A stretch of DNA of 39,249 nucleotides from an uncultured Bacillota bacterium (GCA_946611635.1 CAMODW010000008.1:1-39249), one strand, 5' to 3'. Numbered from the stretch's first letter, positions 3,153 to 18,968 are shown. Translations and numbers: made by a program. The notes: a model not told the origin generated them from the letters alone.

Positions 3153-3158
3153 ACACTT

Positions 3159-3390
3159 AGAAACGAAGAAAGAGAATAGTAAATATAATAATTATCAAAG
3201 AGAGTTCAAGTATGGTGAAATTGAATATAGTATTATATCGAATGACACTCTAGAGTTGATTAAGGAATAAATACTTAATCCGGTAGAAAACCGTTATAAT
3301 AAAAGAGATTACATATGTAATAAAATGGGTGGTACCGCGGAATAAACTAGTTTTCGTCCCTTGTGGATATAAACTAGTTTTTTAATTTTT
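3159..3390 (+). promoter_or_regulatory. T-box riboswitch (tRNA-Asp sensing) before aspS
   Basis: A T-box leader regulates an aminoacyl-tRNA synthetase by sensing uncharged tRNA. The conserved T-box GGGTGGTACCGCGG is at 3327-3340. A GAC (Asp) triplet at 3244-3246 sits in AATGACACTC, just 5' of the closing arm of Stem I (AGAGT / ACTCT), as expected for the specifier. A further stem (CGGTAGAAAACCG) precedes the T-box. The terminator is a 10-bp perfect repeat AAACTAGTTT at 3344-3353 and 3371-3380 followed by a T-rich tract. The T-box sequence is the predicted antiterminator partner of the first terminator arm and its flank. The Asp specifier agrees with the downstream gene. Confidence 0.93.
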
Positions 3391-9610: not shown

Positions 9611-10117
9611 ATGCAAGAATTTGATGAAAGCAGTTTAAAAGCTAAAGTATCTAATATGATGGTTCAATTGTTAATAGCAATTACTAAAGAAAACTTAGAT
9701 GATGTTTTACATTTTCTAAAAGAACAACCAAGAGAGTATGCAAAAAGCATTATTAATAAATTACAAACTAAAAAAGTCCATCAAGTATTTGATGAATTAA
9801 ATATTAGTAGTATTTCTCTTGGTTTTGTAGAAGAAAAAGATAATGCTCTAATCTATAGTGCTATTGTTAACACTAAAAGTTTAAATTATAAAGTAGATAA
9901 TAACAATAATATAGTAGAAGGTAATAATAGTTATCGAACAGATAAAACATACTATCTTAAATTAATTAAAAACAAACATACTAAAGAAGGTATTGTTCTA
10001 AGATGCCCTAGTTGTGGACATTCTATGGATGTTAATTATAGTGGTAAGTGTCCTTATTGTGACTCTATATTTAACCAAGAAGATTATGATTACCAAATAT
10101 TAGAAATAAAAGAATAG
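9611..10117 (+). CDS. Soluble Tim44-like domain protein with C-terminal zinc ribbon
   Basis: A 168-residue protein without membrane segments. The first 125 residues follow the Tim44-like (cone) fold pattern: helices, then FDELNISSISLGFV…ALIYSAIV, then an outer strand TYYLKLIK. The end is a zinc ribbon with C132, C135, C147 and C150 (CPSCG-x10-CPYC). Tim44-like domains bind membranes or lipids in mitochondria and have scattered bacterial relatives; the role here is unknown. It is the first of three related genes (10130 and 11583 follow) whose zinc ribbons have identical CxxC-x11-CxxC spacing. The next gene starts 13 bases later. Confidence 0.75.
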   Translation: MQEFDESSLKAKVSNMMVQLLIAITKENLDDVLHFLKEQPREYAKSIINKLQTKKVHQVFDELNISSISLGFVEEKDNALIYSAIVNTKSLNYKVDNNNNIVEGNNSYRTDKTYYLKLIKNKHTKEGIVLRCPSCGHSMDVNYSGKCPYCDSIFNQEDYDYQILEIKE

Positions 10118-10129
10118 AGGAGTAATAAT

Positions 10130-11137
10130 ATGAAAAAGTACATATTTCTGTTTATATTTGCTGTTACTCTTGTAAGTATAGTAGTAGTATATAAACCTAA
10201 CTTACGAACAATAACAACCGATTCTGGTTGGGACTCTAGTTATAGTTCTAGTAGTAGTTCTAGTAGTTCAAGTGATTCTTTTAGTGATAATGATGGAGGT
10301 GGTTCATCAAATACACCGGATACTCTCTTTATTAATATGAATAACATTCAAATTATAATTATTGAAGTAGTAGTTTCAACAGCTGTTTTAATTATGATTG
10401 GTAAATTGTCTCATAATTGGAAATTGGCTATTATTGCAAGCATTATAAGAATAATCCCTTTTTTACCATTAGAATTATATAATGATGGTAGATGGTTAAT
10501 GCTCAGTCTTTTTAGTTATATTCCATTGGCTATGATTATTTTAATAATTCTTTACTATAAAACTTCTAAAGCTAAGACTGAATTAGTTCAAAAACTTCTT
10601 ATTGAATGCTCTGATGAAGAACTGCAAAAAACGGGTATTTCTAATAGAGAAGAATTTAAAAATGAATTATATAATATCTTTGTTGACATTCAAATGGCTT
10701 GGATGAATTTTGATTATGATGCTTTATCAAAACTATGTTCAAATGAATTATTTAGTAGATATAAAAGTCAATTAGAAGTATTAAAATCTAAACATGGTAA
10801 AAATATTATGAGTGATTTTACTCCAGTTAAAATTATTATTAATTCTGTTGCTGTTAATAATAATATGATCTTAGTAAATCTTTTCCTTGATGTTATATTC
10901 TATGATTATGTAATTGATACTATAACTAATCAAGTTACAAGAGGTACTAAAAATAAAAAATTAAATAATATGTATCACTTACAATATACCAAAAAAATTG
11001 ATCCAATTGATACTTGCCCATCATGTGGTTCTAAGTTAACAGAATTAAAAGATAGTAAATGTCCATATTGTAATAGTACAATAATAAATAATAATCAAAA
11101 CTTTGTTTTATCAAATAAGGAGATTATTTGGTTATAA
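10130..11137 (+). CDS. Polytopic Tim44-like protein with Ser-rich loop and zinc ribbon
   Basis: N-terminal hydrophobic segment (about 4-20), then a Ser-rich stretch (nearly unbroken Ser around 36-50) ending in a Gly/Asn-rich segment. Further membrane segments lie near 73-91, 98-114 and 125-143. The C-terminal half is a Tim44-like domain (AWMNFDYDALSKLCSNELF, then DVIFYDYVIDT…VTRGTKNKK) and a zinc ribbon with C296, C299, C311 and C314. The topology places the Tim44-like and zinc domains in the cytoplasm, with the Ser-rich loop likely outside. Paralogue of the genes at 9611 and 11583. Its TAA is followed after one base by the ASCH gene's ATG, so they are translationally linked. Confidence 0.8.
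   Translation: MKKYIFLFIFAVTLVSIVVVYKPNLRTITTDSGWDSSYSSSSSSSSSSDSFSDNDGGGSSNTPDTLFINMNNIQIIIIEVVVSTAVLIMIGKLSHNWKLAIIASIIRIIPFLPLELYNDGRWLMLSLFSYIPLAMIILIILYYKTSKAKTELVQKLLIECSDEELQKTGISNREEFKNELYNIFVDIQMAWMNFDYDALSKLCSNELFSRYKSQLEVLKSKHGKNIMSDFTPVKIIINSVAVNNNMILVNLFLDVIFYDYVIDTITNQVTRGTKNKKLNNMYHLQYTKKIDPIDTCPSCGSKLTELKDSKCPYCNSTIINNNQNFVLSNKEIIWL
10225..10281 (+). repeat. Serine-codon low-complexity tract
   Basis: Irregular run of AGT, TCT and TCA codons encoding an almost pure Ser stretch in the Tim44-like protein. A likely site of length variation between strains. Confidence 0.6.
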
Positions 11138-11138
11138 T

Positions 11139-11531
11139 ATGATAAAAGTATTAAGTGTTAAAGAACCCTTTGCTTCTCTAATTGCTAGTAATATTAAACA
11201 TATCGAAACTAGAAGTTGGAAAACTAATTATCGTGGGGAAATATATATTCATGCTTCTTTAACTATTAATCCTTTAAAAGGAAGAGATGAACTAAAAGAA
11301 ATAGTAAAAGATCTTGAATTAAAACCATCATATATATTATGTAAAGCTAATTTAAAAGATTGTATATATATGGATAAAGAATTCTTAGATAAAATAAAAG
11401 AGGATCACCTTGAATATCTTTGTGGACATTATGAAGAAGGCCGTTATGCTTGGGTATTAACTGATATAAAAAGAATAAAACCTATAAGTGTTAAAGGTAA
11501 ACTAGGTATTTGGAATTATGAAGATTTATAA
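11139..11531 (+). CDS. ASCH domain protein
   Basis: A 130-residue single-domain protein. The start (IKVLSVKEPFASLIASNIKHIETRSW) and the following YRGEIYIHAS are the hallmarks of ASCH domains, a PUA-like fold thought to bind RNA or act on modified nucleosides. The ORF track opens at 11103, inside the previous gene. The ATG at 11139 starts the conserved domain and follows the upstream stop by one base. The AAGGAG at 11117 is 16 bases away, so initiation probably depends on coupling. It interrupts the series of Tim44-like genes. Its stop lies in a terminator hairpin, so this unit runs from 9611 to 11545. Confidence 0.85.
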   Translation: MIKVLSVKEPFASLIASNIKHIETRSWKTNYRGEIYIHASLTINPLKGRDELKEIVKDLELKPSYILCKANLKDCIYMDKEFLDKIKEDHLEYLCGHYEEGRYAWVLTDIKRIKPISVKGKLGIWNYEDL

Positions 11532-11545
11532 TCTTCATTTTTTTT
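11518..11545 (+). terminator. Terminator overlapping the end of the ASCH gene
   Basis: ATGAAGATT / AATCTTCAT with a 3-base loop, then eight T. The last codons and the stop of the ASCH gene form the first arm and loop. A TATAAT at 11557-11562 follows and likely starts the next unit. Confidence 0.82.
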
Positions 11546-11582
11546 AATAAACTTAGTATAATATTATTTAGGATAGATGGAT

Positions 11583-12398
11583 ATGAAAAAAATAATAAGT
11601 ATATTTTTAATTTTTATAATACTATTACAATTAGGTACAAAGCCTATAAAGAGTTTTTCTGATAATAGTAATTTATTAGGCATTAAATATACAATATGGG
11701 ATGATGATTACGAAGAAAAAGATACAATCACTCAAATAGTATATTATGGTATCTCTTTTATTATAGTTGGAACAATCTCCTTTCTAGCAATGAACTCCTT
11801 AAAAAAAAGTATGGGAGATACTAAACCAACAAAATCGGATTTACAATTTATTACTAGTATAGAAGACGTTGCAATAGAAAAGATTTACACTTATTTTTCT
11901 AATGAAAATATTAGTCAATTAAAAGAAAAACTATTCTTAAAATTTGTTGATTATAAAACATCTTATATGAAATATGACTATAATAGATTACAAGTATTAT
12001 GTGATACAAGTCTTTATAATTATATAGTTAATGAATTAAATACTTTTAGACAAAATGGATATAATACTTATTCTCATTCATTTTTATTAAAAGCATCTAA
12101 AATAGGAGATATACACGAGGAAGGAAATCTAATAGTTACTTCCATCTATTTACAATTAAACTATTATAATTATGTAGAAGATAGTAATAAAAATGTTATT
12201 GCTGGCAAAAAACTTGAACCAATAGAAGAATGTTTAAAAATAGATTATATTATTACAAAAAACAAAGATAATATTTCTTGTCTAAATTGCGGAAAAAAAG
12301 TATTCTTAGAAAAAAATGGTAATTGTCCTTATTGTGGAGCACCAGTTACTATTGATGCTCCTGATTATAAACTAAGAAGTATTACCAAATGTGAGTGA
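11583..12398 (+). CDS. Exported-start Tim44-like protein with zinc ribbon
   Basis: Third member of the local family. It has a hydrophobic start (MKKIISIFLIFIILLQLG), a short loop, one membrane segment near residues 55-77, and a helical region. A Tim44-like domain follows (FVDYKTSYMKYDYNRLQVLCDTSLYNYIV … SIYLQLNYYNYVED…VIAGKK). The C-terminal zinc ribbon is CLNCG-x10-CPYC, the same spacing as its paralogues. AGGA at 11570-11573 is 9 bases from the ATG at 11583 and only 3 from the ATG at 11577, so I prefer 11583. Followed by the patatin gene with no terminator between, so the two are co-transcribed. Confidence 0.78.
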   Translation: MKKIISIFLIFIILLQLGTKPIKSFSDNSNLLGIKYTIWDDDYEEKDTITQIVYYGISFIIVGTISFLAMNSLKKSMGDTKPTKSDLQFITSIEDVAIEKIYTYFSNENISQLKEKLFLKFVDYKTSYMKYDYNRLQVLCDTSLYNYIVNELNTFRQNGYNTYSHSFLLKASKIGDIHEEGNLIVTSIYLQLNYYNYVEDSNKNVIAGKKLEPIEECLKIDYIITKNKDNISCLNCGKKVFLEKNGNCPYCGAPVTIDAPDYKLRSITKCE

Positions 12399-12416
12399 TT
12401 AGAAAGGATGAAAAGG

Positions 12417-13559
12417 ATGAATAAAGATTATGCTGTAGTATTTGCTGGTGGTGGAACTAAAGGTTCCTATCAAGTAGGAGTAATTAAAGCGCTAAAAGAG
12501 TTAAAAATAAATATTACTGCTGTTTCTGGTACATCTATTGGTGCTATAAATGGTGCTTTAGTTGTCCAAGGTGATGAAGATAAACTAGAAAACATTTATA
12601 GTAATATAAGAATGCAAGATGTCTTAAAAATAAGTGAAAAAAGAAAAATATCTTCTAATGCCAATATTCTTGAACCTAAAAACGTTTTTAAACTTATTGA
12701 AGAATATATCTCTAATAAAGGTATTTCTAATGAGCCATTAAAAAGAATATTAGAAGATAATATCGATTTAGATAAATTATACTCTTCTAAAATAGATTTT
12801 GGTCTTATTACTTATGATACAAAAAAGAAAAAAGGTGTTGAATTATACAAAGAAGAAATACCTCGAGATAAAATGATAGAGTATTTATTAGCATCTTCTT
12901 GCTTCCCAATTTTTAAACCTCAAAAAATAGGAGATAATAAATATTTAGATGGTGGTTTATCTAATAATATGCCAATATCGTTACTTATCAAAAAAGGCTA
13001 CAGCAATATTATTCTAATCGACGTAATGGGTTTAGGATTAATAAAAAGAAACAAAGCTAATGACATATTCTTCAAAGTAATCAAACCTGATGAAGATGTA
13101 GTCGGATTATTTGACTTTGAACATGATAATATTATGAAAAGTATAACATTAGGATACTTAGATACCTTAAAAGCTTTTAATAAATTAGTGGGAAATTATT
13201 ATTATTTTCCTAAAGAAGAGTTTATAAAACTATTAAATGATTTTACACTAAAAGAAATCTATGGCTTAGAATATGCTGCTAAATCATATAAAATGGATCG
13301 CTTTCGTAAGTATTCGTCAAAAGAATTCTTAAAAGAATTATTATCATATTATGAAGAAGAAGTAAAAAATTATAAAAAGCTAAAAAAAGATATAACAAAT
13401 ATCAGTAATATTAAGAAGATATTTTCTGAAGGATATAAATTTGCTTTGATAGAAGATATATCTAACAACTATCCATCATTTTTAACAACCTATAAAGGTT
13501 TATTTAGTAAATATCTAGATGCTTCTAGATCACTATATATTTTATCTAAGATTAAGTGA
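12417..13559 (+). CDS. Patatin-like phospholipase
   Basis: Cytoplasmic or membrane-associated serine acyl hydrolase of the patatin/RssA type. It has an oxyanion-hole GGGTKG at residues 11-16, the nucleophile elbow GTSIG with Ser40, and the catalytic Asp in DGG at 178-180. These form the Ser-Asp dyad of the family, which cleaves acyl chains from (phospho)lipids. The C-terminal 190 residues are helical and unassigned. Two ATGs compete: 12408 touches AGAAAGG directly, while 12417 lies 9 bases from it, so I prefer 12417. Directly downstream of a Tim44-like gene and upstream of an acyltransferase unit, which suggests membrane lipid remodelling (inference). Confidence 0.9.
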   Translation: MNKDYAVVFAGGGTKGSYQVGVIKALKELKINITAVSGTSIGAINGALVVQGDEDKLENIYSNIRMQDVLKISEKRKISSNANILEPKNVFKLIEEYISNKGISNEPLKRILEDNIDLDKLYSSKIDFGLITYDTKKKKGVELYKEEIPRDKMIEYLLASSCFPIFKPQKIGDNKYLDGGLSNNMPISLLIKKGYSNIILIDVMGLGLIKRNKANDIFFKVIKPDEDVVGLFDFEHDNIMKSITLGYLDTLKAFNKLVGNYYYFPKEEFIKLLNDFTLKEIYGLEYAAKSYKMDRFRKYSSKEFLKELLSYYEEEVKNYKKLKKDITNISNIKKIFSEGYKFALIEDISNNYPSFLTTYKGLFSKYLDASRSLYILSKIK

Positions 13560-13580
13560 ACTTAACTAAGTTCACTTAAT
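13551..13580 (+). repeat. Perfect 30-bp palindrome at the patatin gene end
   Basis: ATTAAGTGAACTTA, AC, TAAGTTCACTTAAT: 14 bp of perfect inverted repeat around a 2-base centre, covering the patatin stop codon. No T-tract follows, so it is not a standard terminator for either strand. It ends 3 bases before the extended -10 of the next unit and covers its -35 region, so it could act as an operator. Confidence 0.7.
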
Positions 13581-13583
13581 CTA

Positions 13584-13592
13584 TGCTATAAT
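13584..13592 (+). promoter_or_regulatory. Extended -10 promoter of the acyltransferase operon
   Basis: TGCTATAAT directly after the 30-bp palindrome; no good -35 element. Confidence 0.6.
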
Positions 13593-13610
13593 TAACAAGA
13601 GGTGAACATC

Positions 13611-14843
13611 ATGAAAAACACTTGGTATAAATTAGACAACGTTGGTACATTTTATGCAAGTTTAACAAACAAAAAAATTCCAGGGGTATTCAGATTTACA
13701 GCTACTATGATAGAAGATGTTGATAAAGCAATCCTTTTAGAAGCCTTAAAAAAAACCATCTCTCTATTACCTAATATAAACGTATCTTTAAAAGCTGGTT
13801 TTTTTTGGTATTATTTAGAACAATCAAATGAAGAGGTAGCAGTTTTAGAAGACAATGGTAACGTTTGTTCTCGTATTTATACTTCTAAATATCCTCGTTT
13901 ATTTAGAGTTACATATTATAAAAAAAGAATAAACTTAGAATTATCCCATGTACTTTCTGATGGAAGGGGAACTCTAGAAATTTTCAAAGTATTAATAAAT
14001 AGTTATATAGCTTTAAAATATAATATAGAGATAAATGTTAATGAAACATCATCTTCACTACTTGAGAAAGTTGAAGACTCTTTTGATAAATATTATAAAA
14101 AAGGTAAGAAAGCTAAAAACAATAATAAAAATATCTATAGATATAATAAGATTAAACTAACTAACAATCGTATTAACTTCTATGAAGTTCATCTAAATTC
14201 TAAAAAGCTATTAGAAATAGCTCATAAATATAATGCTACTATCACTTCGTTTCTAATTAGTGTTATTATTTATTGTATAAAAGAAGAAATGAAAGAAAGA
14301 GAGCTATCTAAAAATATAAAAATTGATATACCAGTTGATTTAAGAACAATATATAAGTCTTCTACATTAAAAAACTTCTTTGCTTTATCAACAATTACTT
14401 ATAAAGTTCCAAGTAAAGATACAAAAATAGAAGATATAATAAAATATGTTAAAAAATATTTAAAAGAGAATTTAACTGAAGAGCAATTATCTCCACGTGT
14501 TAATAAAATGGAAGGCTTTGAAAAGCTAATTGCTGCTAGATTATTGCCTTTAATTATAAAGGAAATAGGAATAAATGTAATAGATTTCTTTACTAAAAAA
14601 CTAAACACAACTATAATATCTAACGTCGGAATTGTAACTTTTCCCAAAGAATGTGAAAAGTATATAGATAATATTAGTTGTTTATCTACAACAGAAAATT
14701 TCCAATTCACAGCAATAACATATAAAGATAATCTATGTATTGGAATATCTTCTCGTTACTATCATAATAATATAATCAAGAATCTTATTAGATACTTAAA
14801 ATCTTTAGATTTAGAATTATTAGTAAATACAAATGAGGTATAA
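13611..14843 (+). CDS. Condensation-fold acyltransferase (alcohol acetyltransferase-like)
   Basis: CoA-dependent acyltransferase superfamily fold (chloramphenicol acetyltransferase / NRPS condensation). The catalytic HxxxDG motif is HVLSDG with His113 and Asp117. A second half contains a typical IDIPVDLRTIYKS segment and TIISNVGIV near the expected DFGWG-equivalent position. The length of 411 residues is right for stand-alone alcohol acetyltransferase-like members. The substrate is unknown; alcohols, glycolipids or wall polymers are possible. I use the ATG at 13611, preceded by AAGAGGTG, and not the GTG at 13602. First gene of a three-gene operon, with the next ATG two bases after its stop. 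Confidence 0.78.
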   Translation: MKNTWYKLDNVGTFYASLTNKKIPGVFRFTATMIEDVDKAILLEALKKTISLLPNINVSLKAGFFWYYLEQSNEEVAVLEDNGNVCSRIYTSKYPRLFRVTYYKKRINLELSHVLSDGRGTLEIFKVLINSYIALKYNIEINVNETSSSLLEKVEDSFDKYYKKGKKAKNNNKNIYRYNKIKLTNNRINFYEVHLNSKKLLEIAHKYNATITSFLISVIIYCIKEEMKERELSKNIKIDIPVDLRTIYKSSTLKNFFALSTITYKVPSKDTKIEDIIKYVKKYLKENLTEEQLSPRVNKMEGFEKLIAARLLPLIIKEIGINVIDFFTKKLNTTIISNVGIVTFPKECEKYIDNISCLSTTENFQFTAITYKDNLCIGISSRYYHNNIIKNLIRYLKSLDLELLVNTNEV

Positions 14844-14845
14844 AT

Positions 14846-15484
14846 ATGAAAAAATGTAATAGTTGTGGTATAAACATTAATACAAATTATGATTATTGCC
14901 CATTTTGTCAAGATAAACTAGTTGGTGAATCATTCTCTTACTATCCTAAATATAAAAGAAAAAAAATGCCTAGCATTTTTAAAATAATTGTATTTATATC
15001 ACTTATAGCTGGCATTATAATAGGATTCATAGACTATAATATTAATTCTACATTCACTTGGAGTATTTATTGTTTCTTAGGATTACTATCTAATATTATT
15101 ATTAATTTTAGTATCTTTCATAGCGAAAAAGATATCCACAATTCAATAATAGGATATAGCTTAGTATTAATACTAATAGCTCTTATTTGGTATTTTAAAA
15201 CAAAATTTAATATTATCTCTAATTTAATAATTCCTATTATATGTATCTTTATTATGTTATATACATGTTGTATGTCATTCTTTACTAAAATAAAACCTTT
15301 ATCCTATTTATCAATTAATATATTAGTAATACTAATTCCAATATTATTAGTATTAAGACATTATACTACTAATAACATTCTAAGTTACTTAGCAATATTA
15401 ATCTTTATAATAATCTTTATTGCTTTATATTTCTTCCGTCATGATGAACTTAGAGAAGAATTAATAAAGATATTTAGAATATAG
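14846..15484 (+). CDS. Zinc-ribbon polytopic membrane protein (DUF6320-like)
   Basis: N-terminal zinc ribbon CNSCG…CPFC (Cys4, Cys7, Cys18 and Cys21), then a basic linker (YKRKKMPS) and about six membrane segments to residue 200. From memory, proteins of this layout (DUF6320) sit beside condensation-fold acyltransferases in Bacillota, and that is the arrangement here; the family name is tentative. It starts two bases after the acyltransferase stop. A plausible job is to recruit or feed the acyltransferase at the membrane (inference). Confidence 0.72.
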   Translation: MKKCNSCGININTNYDYCPFCQDKLVGESFSYYPKYKRKKMPSIFKIIVFISLIAGIIIGFIDYNINSTFTWSIYCFLGLLSNIIINFSIFHSEKDIHNSIIGYSLVLILIALIWYFKTKFNIISNLIIPIICIFIMLYTCCMSFFTKIKPLSYLSINILVILIPILLVLRHYTTNNILSYLAILIFIIIFIALYFFRHDELREELIKIFRI

Positions 15485-15491
15485 GTGAAAT

Positions 15492-16295
15492 ATGTATAAA
15501 GACAATATAGAATTAGTAAAAAAAATATTTACTCTAATAAATCTCCCTTATAAAGAAGAAAATATAGAAGATGCTTTTCTATTCTTAGATCAGTATACTA
15601 TATATTTTTTAAATCTAAGAGATTTATTAGAACAAGAAGATGCTTACTTAGTAGATAAACTAAATAAACAAGTAGAATACTATAATATGGTAGCCAAAGA
15701 GATAAATAATAATTCTTTTGAAGAAGTACTAGATAATAAAATATCTAACTTAAAAAAGAAGTATAAAGAAATGTTAAAATATAAAAATAAAAAATATGAT
15801 CCAACATTATCTTTTAAAGAATTATCTACTACAGTATCTAACTATTATAATTATTATGCTTATAATATTGAAATATCCTATCAAGCAGCTATAAGTAATA
15901 CTCTATATAATAGAAGAAATGATTATAAAACCAATATAACAGATATTGAAAGAATAATATTATTAGAAGATACTCTTAATAAGTTAGATAACTACCAAGA
16001 ACATGCTTATGATTATAAAGACTTTGAATTAGAAGACAATCAAACTTTTGAAGATTTACTAGATTTAGAAGATCTTAAGTATGAAGAACTATATAAAGAA
16101 ATACTAGATTATCATAATATTGAATATAATGAAGGAGATAATTACGAAGAACTAGCTACTATCTATTATCCACCTTTAAAAGACATACTTAAAATAGTCC
16201 ATTCTGCATCGCTACATAGTGGTACTTATATAGACATTTTAGATACTATGGAAAAATACTATAACAAGATTAAAGAAGATTATAAAAATTATTAA
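15492..16295 (+). CDS. Soluble helical protein, unknown function
   Basis: No family recognised. The 267-residue protein is very rich in Tyr, Asn, Glu, Asp and Lys, acidic overall, without membrane segments or cysteines. It appears mostly helical with coiled-coil-like stretches near residues 60-110. It begins seven bases after the membrane protein stop (AGGTGAAATATG, a ribosome binding site close to the ATG) and ends at a strong terminator, so it belongs to the acyltransferase operon. Confidence 0.75.
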   Translation: MYKDNIELVKKIFTLINLPYKEENIEDAFLFLDQYTIYFLNLRDLLEQEDAYLVDKLNKQVEYYNMVAKEINNNSFEEVLDNKISNLKKKYKEMLKYKNKKYDPTLSFKELSTTVSNYYNYYAYNIEISYQAAISNTLYNRRNDYKTNITDIERIILLEDTLNKLDNYQEHAYDYKDFELEDNQTFEDLLDLEDLKYEELYKEILDYHNIEYNEGDNYEELATIYYPPLKDILKIVHSASLHSGTYIDILDTMEKYYNKIKEDYKNY

Positions 16296-16296
16296 A

Positions 16297-16325
16297 ACCA
16301 AGTTTGTTTAAACTTGGTATTTTTA
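16297..16325 (+). terminator. Terminator of the acyltransferase operon
   Basis: ACCAAGTTT / AAACTTGGT with a GTTT loop and a short T-tract, two bases after the TAA. Confidence 0.85.
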
Positions 16326-16805: not shown

Positions 16806-18968
16806 ATGAAATATCTAAAATACCTATTAATACTACTATTTATACCATTCCTAGTCCTAGCAGAAGAATGTGATGTTTCTAATATAACAATAACTTCTAT
16901 GAAACCAAATAAGATAGAAGGTAATACTGAAGTAATAAGTGAACCAACATTCGAAGATAGAACTATAAAACTAAATTTAAAAATGTATGATGTTGGAGAT
17001 TCTATTAGTTATGATATGACAATTAAAAATGATTCAGAAGAAGACTATATGATAGATGAAGATACCTTTAAAACTAATTCTAACTATATAGAATATACTT
17101 TAAAAACAAAAGATAATACTAATGTAGTAAAAGGAAATAGTACTAAAGAAGTATCACTAATAGTAACATATAAAAAAGAAGTAGAAGATGATAAATTAAC
17201 TAATAATAAATTCAATGCTTCTAATACATTAAAACTATCATTAAATACAAGTGAAAAAGAACAACCACTAGATATTATTACTACTGATAATATAAAAGAA
17301 TCATTAGATCCACAAGAAGTAAAAAATCCAATCACTAGTGTGTCTAGTATGTTGTTAATAAGTACAATCTTATTAACAACAATACTAATAATATATATAC
17401 TAATAAAGAGAAAAAACAAATATACAAAATATCTATTAATTGTGTTATCTATGATACTAATACCTACAGTATATGCCATATGTACATGTGACATAGAAGT
17501 AGAGTCAACTATAGAAATAGAAAAAAATCAAAAACTATTTGATACTGTAGTGGGATTATCAAAGGTGGATAATGCCTGTGTTACTAAATATGAAGGAGAA
17601 GTAACCGACGAAGTAGGTAAAACGGTAGCTGCAACAAATGTCTATTATGATAAATGTGTAGATAAAAGAAATGTAATATTTGGAGGATTTTGTTGGCAAG
17701 TAATCAGAACAACTGAAACTGGCGGAACAAAAGTTATATATAATGGTGAAGCAGTTGATGGTAAGTGTGAAAGTACTAGAGAAAGGCATATTGGTTACGA
17801 AGGTGACTCCGACCTACAAACAAATATGAGTGGTGAATATCTATATGGTTCATCAATTACAATTGATAAAGAAACAAAATCATTTGTCTTAAATGATACC
17901 TTTTCTGAGGAATGGTCGGAATCAACATTTGATAGGTTAATAGGCAAGTTTACTTGCAAAAACTCAACAGGCAAATGTAAAGCTGTATATAGTATAAGCG
18001 CCAAATATTCAAACCAAAACGCTTATGCATTAAAGATTCATTATGGAAATGTTTCTTACGATGTAATTGGGAACAACGCATATAATCATTATGGATTATC
18101 TCCAGCAATGGTCGGATATATGTTTAATAATGTATATGAAGTTCAAAAGTATAACACATATCGTTCACCAACACACAAGCTTTCTTCGGCATTTACATAT
18201 GATAGCGAAACAGGAAAATACACGCTTTCAGGAATTACTAAAAACGTGGATTTGTATCGAAAATATAATCAAATATCAGATACACACTATACTTGTTGGA
18301 ATGAAACTGGAGAATGTGATACCATATCCTATATTTATCAAACCGATAACAATAGTGTTGATTATATTAATATTACAAATGGAAAGAGTATAACCGATGC
18401 TTTAGATGATATGTTATCAAATAATGATGTGAATAAATATAATTCGACTATGAAGGGTATAATAGATTCATGGTATGCTCAAAATTTAAGTACTAAAACA
18501 GATATGTTAGAAGATACTGTGTACTGTAATAATCGAACCATTGCTGATTTAGGTTCTTGGAATCCAAATGGTGGAGACTATACATCAAATTTGCTTTTTA
18601 CCGATTATTATGGTTCTAATAATATATCGTGTTTACGGGAAACAGATCAGTTTTCTTTAACAAATAATAAAGCTCAATTAACTTATCCTATTGGACTTTT
18701 AACTAGTGGAGAATACTATAATTTGCGGATGCCACAAGAAACAAATGAGTTACCAAGTTCAGAATACTATTATTGGAGTATGTCTCCCAAATATTTTTCC
18801 ATAGATTCATTTGCTTTCTTGAATAGTGACTATAGCAATTGGAGTTTAGATAATCGTATAGGTGTTCAAAGTAATACTGGTGTACGACCTGCTATATCTT
18901 TAAAATCATCTTTGCAAATTGTATCTGGAACCGGTTCCGAAACTGACCCTTGGGTAATAAAAGAGTAA
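16806..18968 (+). CDS. Large surface protein: two exported modules joined by a membrane hairpin
   Basis: 720 residues. A signal peptide (MKYLKYLLIL…VLAEE, cut near 19) leads a first outer module to about residue 175. A membrane segment follows (178-200), then a basic loop KRKNKYTKY, and a second hydrophobic segment (209-224) ending TVYA like another signal peptide. The second outer module of about 490 residues is rich in Tyr, Ser, Asn and Thr. It opens with FGGFCWQVIRTT and closes with NTGVRPAISLKSS and SGTGSETDPWVIKE, a C-terminal pattern resembling the DUF6273-type surface modules of gut Bacillota (from memory). Eight or more cysteines could form disulfides. NPITS before the first segment looks like a decayed wall-sorting motif. 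Single-gene unit; surface adhesion or sensing is inference. Confidence 0.82.
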   Translation: MKYLKYLLILLFIPFLVLAEECDVSNITITSMKPNKIEGNTEVISEPTFEDRTIKLNLKMYDVGDSISYDMTIKNDSEEDYMIDEDTFKTNSNYIEYTLKTKDNTNVVKGNSTKEVSLIVTYKKEVEDDKLTNNKFNASNTLKLSLNTSEKEQPLDIITTDNIKESLDPQEVKNPITSVSSMLLISTILLTTILIIYILIKRKNKYTKYLLIVLSMILIPTVYAICTCDIEVESTIEIEKNQKLFDTVVGLSKVDNACVTKYEGEVTDEVGKTVAATNVYYDKCVDKRNVIFGGFCWQVIRTTETGGTKVIYNGEAVDGKCESTRERHIGYEGDSDLQTNMSGEYLYGSSITIDKETKSFVLNDTFSEEWSESTFDRLIGKFTCKNSTGKCKAVYSISAKYSNQNAYALKIHYGNVSYDVIGNNAYNHYGLSPAMVGYMFNNVYEVQKYNTYRSPTHKLSSAFTYDSETGKYTLSGITKNVDLYRKYNQISDTHYTCWNETGECDTISYIYQTDNNSVDYINITNGKSITDALDDMLSNNDVNKYNSTMKGIIDSWYAQNLSTKTDMLEDTVYCNNRTIADLGSWNPNGGDYTSNLLFTDYYGSNNISCLRETDQFSLTNNKAQLTYPIGLLTSGEYYNLRMPQETNELPSSEYYYWSMSPKYFSIDSFAFLNSDYSNWSLDNRIGVQSNTGVRPAISLKSSLQIVSGTGSETDPWVIKE

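What the first reader, a model, noticed from the sequence alone, without database searches (positions are those of the whole stretch)
11583..16295. Candidate lipid-remodelling cluster: Tim44-like, patatin, acyltransferase, zinc-ribbon membrane protein
A Tim44-like gene is co-transcribed with a patatin phospholipase. The next operon encodes an HxxxD acyltransferase, a zinc-ribbon six-pass membrane protein and an unknown helical protein. A deacylase next to an acyltransferase, with membrane adaptor-like proteins, is what an acyl-exchange pathway on a lipid or lipid-linked polymer would look like. The whole may be an undescribed system.
Basis: inference. Interest (0 to 1): 0.62.

Follow-up and report, generated by a model that had tools for sequence, protein, structure and literature searches.

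The report
Membrane-tethered acyltransferase module with esterase partner
Two genes in this gut-type bacterium, an enzyme that should attach acyl groups to an alcohol and a six-pass membrane protein that probably holds it at the membrane, belong to a widespread but undescribed gene module that in other gut anaerobes often carries its own acyl-removing enzyme; the neighbouring patatin, Tim44-like and helical genes are mostly local neighbours.

Summary
All five genes are at 11577-16295, in two inferred transcription units. The idea of one five-gene lipid system fails. The whole block recurs only in one close relative (L062, 55-71% identity). Elsewhere the patatin, Tim44-like and helical genes sit apart from the acyltransferase, and patatin/acyltransferase presence is not associated (Fisher p=0.75).

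Inside the block is a real, undescribed module: HxxxD acyltransferase + DUF6320. Acyltransferase loci have DUF6320 next door or fused in 71/73; DUF6320 loci have the acyltransferase in 28/29 and 30/30. Four natural fusions, from several lineages, all lack the DUF6320 zinc ribbon, as if the ribbon normally docks the enzyme. Predicted fold: PapA5/TRI101-type CoA acyltransferase. DUF6320: N-in/C-in six-TM protein with no fold match in the PDB.

In other genomes a cytosolic serine esterase often completes the operon: a hormone-sensitive-lipase type directly upstream in 42/101 loci, a pectinacetylesterase type downstream in 8, never both. So 'acyl on / acyl off' is right in spirit, with the wrong deacylase.

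Best explanation: membrane-tethered, acyl-CoA-dependent O-acylation of a lipophilic alcohol, reversible where an esterase is present; substrate unknown. No held paper mentions DUF6320. New variant of a known kind.

The parts
13602..14843 (+). HxxxD acyltransferase (PapA5/AATase-like, CoA-dependent acyltransferase fold); core of the module; start GTG 13602 or ATG 13611
   Evidence: H113xxxD117G invariant in 44 relatives; AF2 model pLDDT 91 matches PapA5, TRI101, PtMAC2p; no Pfam match over cut-off for this member, a relative passes PF16911 PapA_C with 40.7 bits
14846..15484 (+). DUF6320: N-terminal zinc ribbon (Cys 4, 7, 18, 21), six TM helices, C-terminal amphipathic helix; inferred membrane tether/partner of the acyltransferase
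   Evidence: PF19845 E=2.9e-21; model pLDDT 90, no PDB fold match; positive-inside pattern N-in/C-in; near-obligate neighbour or fusion
13549..13595 (+). hairpin (13549-13582) followed by TGCTATAAT: inferred end of the patatin unit and start of the acyltransferase unit
   Evidence: fold -18.8 kcal/mol, z=-4.5; L062 keeps a hairpin and TATAAT with different sequence
12408..13559 (+). patatin-like phospholipase; neighbour, not a conserved member of the module
   Evidence: PF01734 2.5e-31; in 43/78 family genomes, on other contigs in all 6 other genomes that also hold the acyltransferase
11577..12398 (+). Tim44-like, zinc-ribbon protein with hydrophobic N terminus; belongs to a family of tandem paralogues; neighbour only
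   Evidence: PF04280 23.7 bits, below cut-off; relatives in 19/78 family genomes, tandem in many and beside neither patatin nor acyltransferase in the loci read
15492..16295 (+). unknown soluble protein of the same inferred transcription unit; rare and not linked elsewhere
   Evidence: 68% identical copy in L062; distant relatives in 3 other family genomes, unlinked in G060, which holds the acyltransferase on another contig
16297..16318 (+). terminator-like hairpin ending the acyltransferase unit

Best explanation
The working unit at this locus is the pair acyltransferase (13602-14843) + DUF6320 (14846-15484). The acyltransferase is a cytosolic, acyl-CoA-dependent O-acyltransferase of the PapA5/AATase/BAHD fold: His113 of HxxxDG should deprotonate the hydroxyl of an acceptor that then attacks the thioester. 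DUF6320 is a six-pass membrane protein with both ends in the cytosol; its zinc ribbon docks the acyltransferase at the inner face of the membrane so that it can reach a membrane-dissolved or lipid-linked alcohol. In many other genomes a cytosolic serine esterase in the same operon can remove the acyl group, making an acyl-on/acyl-off cycle; in the window's lineage that third gene is missing or perhaps replaced (the patatin is one unproven candidate). Shown: gene order, pairing, fusions, predicted fold, motif, topology signal. Inferred: CoA donor, docking, substrate class, reversibility.
For: Pairing in both directions: acyltransferase loci with DUF6320 next or fused 71/73; DUF6320 loci with the acyltransferase 28/29 and 30/30. 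Four natural fusions in one chain: L147/L174 638 aa, L131 669 aa, L253 634 aa, L260 653 aa; at least three separate origins on the tree; all four lack the ribbon, against ribbon in 99/101 and 26/28 unfused proteins. Fold: model pLDDT 91; PapA5 1q9j_A TM 0.64-0.67, TRI101 2zba_A 0.67/0.64, PtMAC2p 8jos 0.65 query-normalised. Topology: mean K+R N-term 7.1, loops 0.6/1.6/0.9/2.4/0.8, C-term 4.0, the positive-inside alternation. Esterase slot: HSL-type at -1 in 42/101 loci, PAE-type at +2 in 8 others, none with both; these families within 3 genes 57/574 versus 2/640 at 5-10 genes; esterases carry no signal peptide. A. colihominis VE303-02: alpha/beta hydrolase - acyltransferase - DUF6320 - diacylglycerol kinase family.
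Against: No substrate, donor or physical interaction is shown. Four unfused DUF6320 proteins lack the ribbon (L188, L190, L262, L266), so the ribbon is not strictly needed for unfused partners; L262 and L266 group with the fusion L260. No esterase of the four families tested lies beside the module in most RF39-type relatives and in many two-gene operons, so reversibility cannot be general. The esterase profiles were built from the neighbours themselves, which inflates the near/far contrast. Fold matches include NRPS condensation domains, so the donor need not be CoA.
Confidence: 0.62

Rival explanations
1. One reading: the five genes (Tim44-like, patatin, acyltransferase, DUF6320, helical) form one acyl-exchange system in which the patatin is the deacylase.
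For: Block order kept in L062 although the Tim44 paralogues and ASCH gene differ there; patatin occupies the -1 position where HSL-type esterases sit in other genomes.
Against: L062 is close and shares the flanking genes too, so synteny alone explains it. In G026, G033, G040, G041, G046, G072 patatin and acyltransferase lie on different contigs; presence not associated, Fisher p=0.75. Hairpin plus -10 separates the two units. G033, filed in the same genus, has DUF6320 followed by an alpha/beta hydrolase and no patatin nearby.
Confidence: 0.1
2. Biosynthetic rather than reversible: the acyltransferase makes an acylated (glyco)lipid or lipid-linked polymer and the alpha/beta hydrolase acts as a second transacylase, as in mycobacterial PapA/Chp pathways.
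For: The best-matching solved enzymes by TM include PapA5; PapA_C is the strongest family match in a relative; in M. tuberculosis cytosolic DAT synthesis is followed by a transesterase Chp2 (PMC4183827). A glycosyltransferase follows DUF6320 in L045.
Against: Chp2 acts on the periplasmic side, whereas the esterases here have no signal peptide. No conserved third biosynthetic partner recurs.
Confidence: 0.2
3. Small-alcohol ester formation or detoxification in the cytosol (AATase/TRI101-like), with DUF6320 only a localisation or export factor for the ester.
For: Fold similarity to TRI101 and plant/fungal alcohol acyltransferases; weak AATase matches in relatives.
Against: The near-obligate six-TM partner and its fusions point to a membrane substrate.
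Confidence: 0.15
4. Anti-phage or toxin-like phospholipase locus built on the patatin.
For: Patatin matches PADLOC phospholipase effectors (6.2e-10) and NCBIfam CBASS lipase weakly (29.9 bits, cut-off 200).
Against: No other defence family match in the block, scores far below the equivalog cut-off; patatin common across the family in varied contexts.
Confidence: 0.03

Closest known systems
Yeast Atf2 / Say1 sterol acetylation-deacetylation cycle
   Same: An alcohol acetyltransferase paired with a deacetylase acting on lipophilic alcohols at a membrane (PMC4076087); HSL-type esterases from two loci here match PF10340 Say1_Mug180 above its cut-off, though less well than Abhydrolase_3.
   Different: Yeast enzymes are separately encoded, Say1 has its own TM helix, and there is no DUF6320; the bacterial substrate is unknown and the window lacks an adjacent esterase.
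Mycobacterial PapA5 / PapA acyltransferases with Chp transesterases
   Same: HxxxD acyltransferase fold (1q9j TM 0.64-0.67) plus an alpha/beta-hydrolase-type enzyme in the same pathway (PMC4183827).
   Different: No polyketide synthase, FadD or MmpL partner seen here; esterases cytosolic; a dedicated six-TM zinc-ribbon partner is added.
TRI101 trichothecene 3-O-acetyltransferase, PtMAC2p, plant BAHD enzymes
   Same: Same fold, HxxxD, CoA-dependent O-acylation of hydrophobic alcohols.
   Different: About 10-13% identity in the structural alignments; no membrane partner protein known to me for these.
NRPS condensation domains
   Same: Same superfamily fold; lowest E-values in the fold search.
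   Different: The top-ranked ones have lower TM (0.51-0.55) than PapA5/TRI101; stand-alone gene, and no other NRPS gene recurs in the neighbourhoods.

Membership tests
CoA-dependent HxxxD acyltransferase superfamily (CAT/PapA/BAHD/C-domain fold) | two-lobed fold | tested here: met
   AF2 pLDDT 91; PapA5 TM 0.64-0.67, TRI101 0.67/0.64
CoA-dependent HxxxD acyltransferase superfamily (CAT/PapA/BAHD/C-domain fold) | catalytic HxxxD(G) motif | tested here: met
   H113, D117, G118 invariant in 44 sequences
CoA-dependent HxxxD acyltransferase superfamily (CAT/PapA/BAHD/C-domain fold) | acyl-CoA as donor | not testable with these tools
   inferred from fold; carrier-protein donors not excluded
PapA_C (PF16911) / AATase (PF07247) | match over curated cut-off | tested here: not met
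   window protein 13.2 bits against 30 for PapA_C; a Coriobacteriia relative reaches 40.7. Works like, but not filed as a PapA
DUF6320 (PF19845) | match over curated cut-off | tested here: met
   76.6 bits, cut-off 29.9
Patatin-like phospholipase (PF01734) | family match, GxSxG and DGG dyad | tested here: met
   109.8 bits; GTSIG and DGG
Tim44-like (PF04280) | match over curated cut-off | tested here: not met
   11577-12398 gives 23.7 bits against 29.6; paralogue 10130-11137 passes with 34.2
Atf2/Say1-type reversible O-acyl cycle | esterase encoded with the acyltransferase | tested here: inconclusive
   met in 42+8 of about 101 relatives' loci, not met in the window itself; only one Abhydrolase_3 protein elsewhere in its genome, unlinked
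Atf2/Say1-type reversible O-acyl cycle | lipophilic alcohol substrate | not testable with these tools
   no substrate data

The most novel reading that the evidence does not exclude
Acyltransferase-DUF6320-esterase is a widespread bacterial counterpart of the yeast Atf2/Say1 cycle: reversible O-acylation of a lipophilic alcohol (endogenous lipid alcohol, or a gut sterol/bile-acid/plant alcohol) at the inner membrane face, with DUF6320 as a dedicated scaffold that presents the membrane substrate to the enzyme.
Probability: 0.2. Interest if true: 0.75.

Novelty: new variant of a known kind. Interest (0 to 1): 0.5.

Why it matters
The module is present in about 22% of 291 sampled genomes of the class of C. 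aminobutyricum, about 9% of 295 sampled genomes of the window's phylum (over-cut-off counts), and in Adlercreutzia and Olsenella, yet DUF6320 has no described function and appears in no paper of the library searched. The fusions and paired esterases turn a 'domain of unknown function' into a specific, testable claim: it is the membrane partner of an O-acyltransferase. Cultured carriers (Anaerotruncus colihominis VE303-02, Clostridium aminobutyricum DSM 2634, Butyrivibrio sp. NC2002) make the test practical.

Tried and rejected
Patatin as module member: unlinked in 6/6 other genomes with both genes, no association. Tim44-like as adaptor: a separate family of tandem paralogues, beside neither patatin nor acyltransferase in the loci read. 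Helical gene as module member: relatives rare and unlinked. Other conserved neighbours of the module: none beyond the esterases; the rest are lineage synteny or housekeeping genes. Mbeg1-like lipases near four RF39-type loci look like shared synteny, not a fixed slot. Diacylglycerol kinase downstream in A. colihominis recurs only in L075. DUF6320 fold search: nothing. PDB sequence search with the acyltransferase profile: nothing. Mixed alignment of the fusion with separate partners misaligned DUF6320 onto the N terminus and was not used for prediction. Gut bile-acid 3-O-acylation was considered as a substrate lead; a review credits a beta-lactamase homologue for it (PMC13275213), and nothing here ties DUF6320 to it.

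Full report
What is there. The window is one whole contig of a 1.33 Mb draft genome (73% complete), A+T rich and gene-dense, otherwise largely housekeeping (aspS-like with a T-box, rimP-nusA, infB, truB, cdsA-like, M50 protease). Patatin and Tim44-like genes are 9 bp apart. Acyltransferase, DUF6320 and the helical gene are 2 and 7 bp apart and end in a terminator-like hairpin. Between patatin and acyltransferase lies a long hairpin (z=-4.5) followed by TGCTATAAT; L062 keeps a hairpin and TATAAT in the same place with different bases.

Does the set travel together? Only in L062, an uncultured Tenericutes bin whose proteins are 55-71% identical to the window's and which also shares genes upstream. 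In 78 genomes of the same family the acyltransferase occurs in 11 and the patatin in 43; the seven that hold both include six where they lie on different contigs, and presence is not associated. Tim44-like relatives occur in 19 of 78, often as tandem pairs, next to neither partner in the loci read. The helical protein has distant relatives in three other genomes, and in G060, which also holds the acyltransferase, it is on another contig. The five-gene system is not supported.

What does travel together? Acyltransferase and DUF6320. In the 80 named loci found through the acyltransferase, 73 had enough downstream sequence; ORF calling found DUF6320 next door in 68 and a six-frame check raised this to 71, one of them a fusion. 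Searching the other way, 28 of 29 DUF6320 loci in the window's phylum and 30 of 30 in the class of C. aminobutyricum have the acyltransferase adjacent or fused. Fourteen well-known control genomes have no DUF6320.

Fusions. Four natural single-chain fusions were found: L147/L174, L131 (uncultured Roseburia), L253 and L260. On a tree of 133 acyltransferases they fall in separate places, L253 and L260 within one clade of six but with different sisters. All four lack the zinc ribbon and have a linker instead, while 99/101 and 26/28 unfused DUF6320 proteins have it. The simplest reading is that the ribbon is the docking element and becomes unnecessary once the two are covalently joined. Four unfused ribbonless proteins show that this is a tendency, not a law.

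Structure. The acyltransferase model (pLDDT 91) matches PapA5, TRI101 and PtMAC2p better by TM-score than the NRPS condensation domains that top the E-value list. H113 and D117 are invariant. DUF6320 (pLDDT 90) is a ribbon, six TM helices and a C-terminal helix with no PDB fold match. Charge counts alternate as expected for both ends inside the cell. The acyltransferase is therefore placed at the cytosolic membrane face, where acyl-CoA is available; that step is inference.

Esterases. Immediately upstream of the acyltransferase, on the same strand and often overlapping it, 41 of 101 loci carry an Abhydrolase_3 (hormone-sensitive-lipase type) gene, one more on the other strand; in Lachnospiraceae-type loci a pectinacetylesterase-type gene sits directly after DUF6320 in 8, and no locus has both. 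Counts for these families plus patatin and Mbeg1-like lipases are 57/574 within three genes and 2/640 at five to ten genes; since the profiles came from these neighbours the ratio is inflated, but two unrelated esterase families in fixed, mutually exclusive slots is not what chance gives. Neither type has a recognisable signal peptide, with one borderline exception. In the cultured isolate A. colihominis VE303-02 the order is alpha/beta hydrolase, acyltransferase, DUF6320, diacylglycerol kinase family protein. The window itself has no such esterase beside the pair; one Abhydrolase_3 protein lies elsewhere in its genome.

Mechanism and rivals. The best-supported account is membrane-tethered O-acylation, made reversible by a dedicated esterase in many lineages. 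The closest working analogue is the yeast Atf2/Say1 cycle (PMC4076087); the closest pathway analogue is mycobacterial PapA/Chp (PMC4183827), which differs because Chp2 works on the periplasmic side. Substrate and donor are unknown. No paper in the library mentions DUF6320.

Verdict. A real, widespread and undescribed two- or three-gene module lies inside a local block of unrelated neighbours.

Noticed in passing
9611-12398: Three Tim44-like proteins with C-terminal zinc ribbons, two of them absent at this place from L062; similar short+long tandem pairs recur in many relatives (L228, L230, L231, L232, L234), a conserved pair of unknown function in its own right.
   Followed up: partly
16806-18968: Large protein with hydrophobic N terminus and an internal TM stretch, no family match at the thresholds used, between the cluster and rimP-nusA; L062 has two shorter, diverged relatives there.
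   Followed up: no
L131 / genome G370: An uncultured Roseburia genome carries two DUF6320 copies: one fused to the acyltransferase and ribbonless, one separate elsewhere.
   Followed up: partly
L269 (MT835493.1) and three other records of the phage collection: The acyltransferase occurs in four unverified faecal 'Bacteriophage sp.' scaffolds, with DUF6320 next to it in the one read; these may be mislabelled bacterial contigs.
   Followed up: partly
L268 (A. colihominis plasmid NZ_CP094683.1): The whole esterase-acyltransferase-DUF6320-diacylglycerol kinase operon sits on a 52 kb replicon.
   Followed up: yes
L066, L068: Contigs labelled Treponema carry Bacilli-like copies of the pair; contamination or transfer.
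   Followed up: no
3157-3364: T-box leader directly upstream of a class II tRNA synthetase gene (aspS-like).
   Followed up: no
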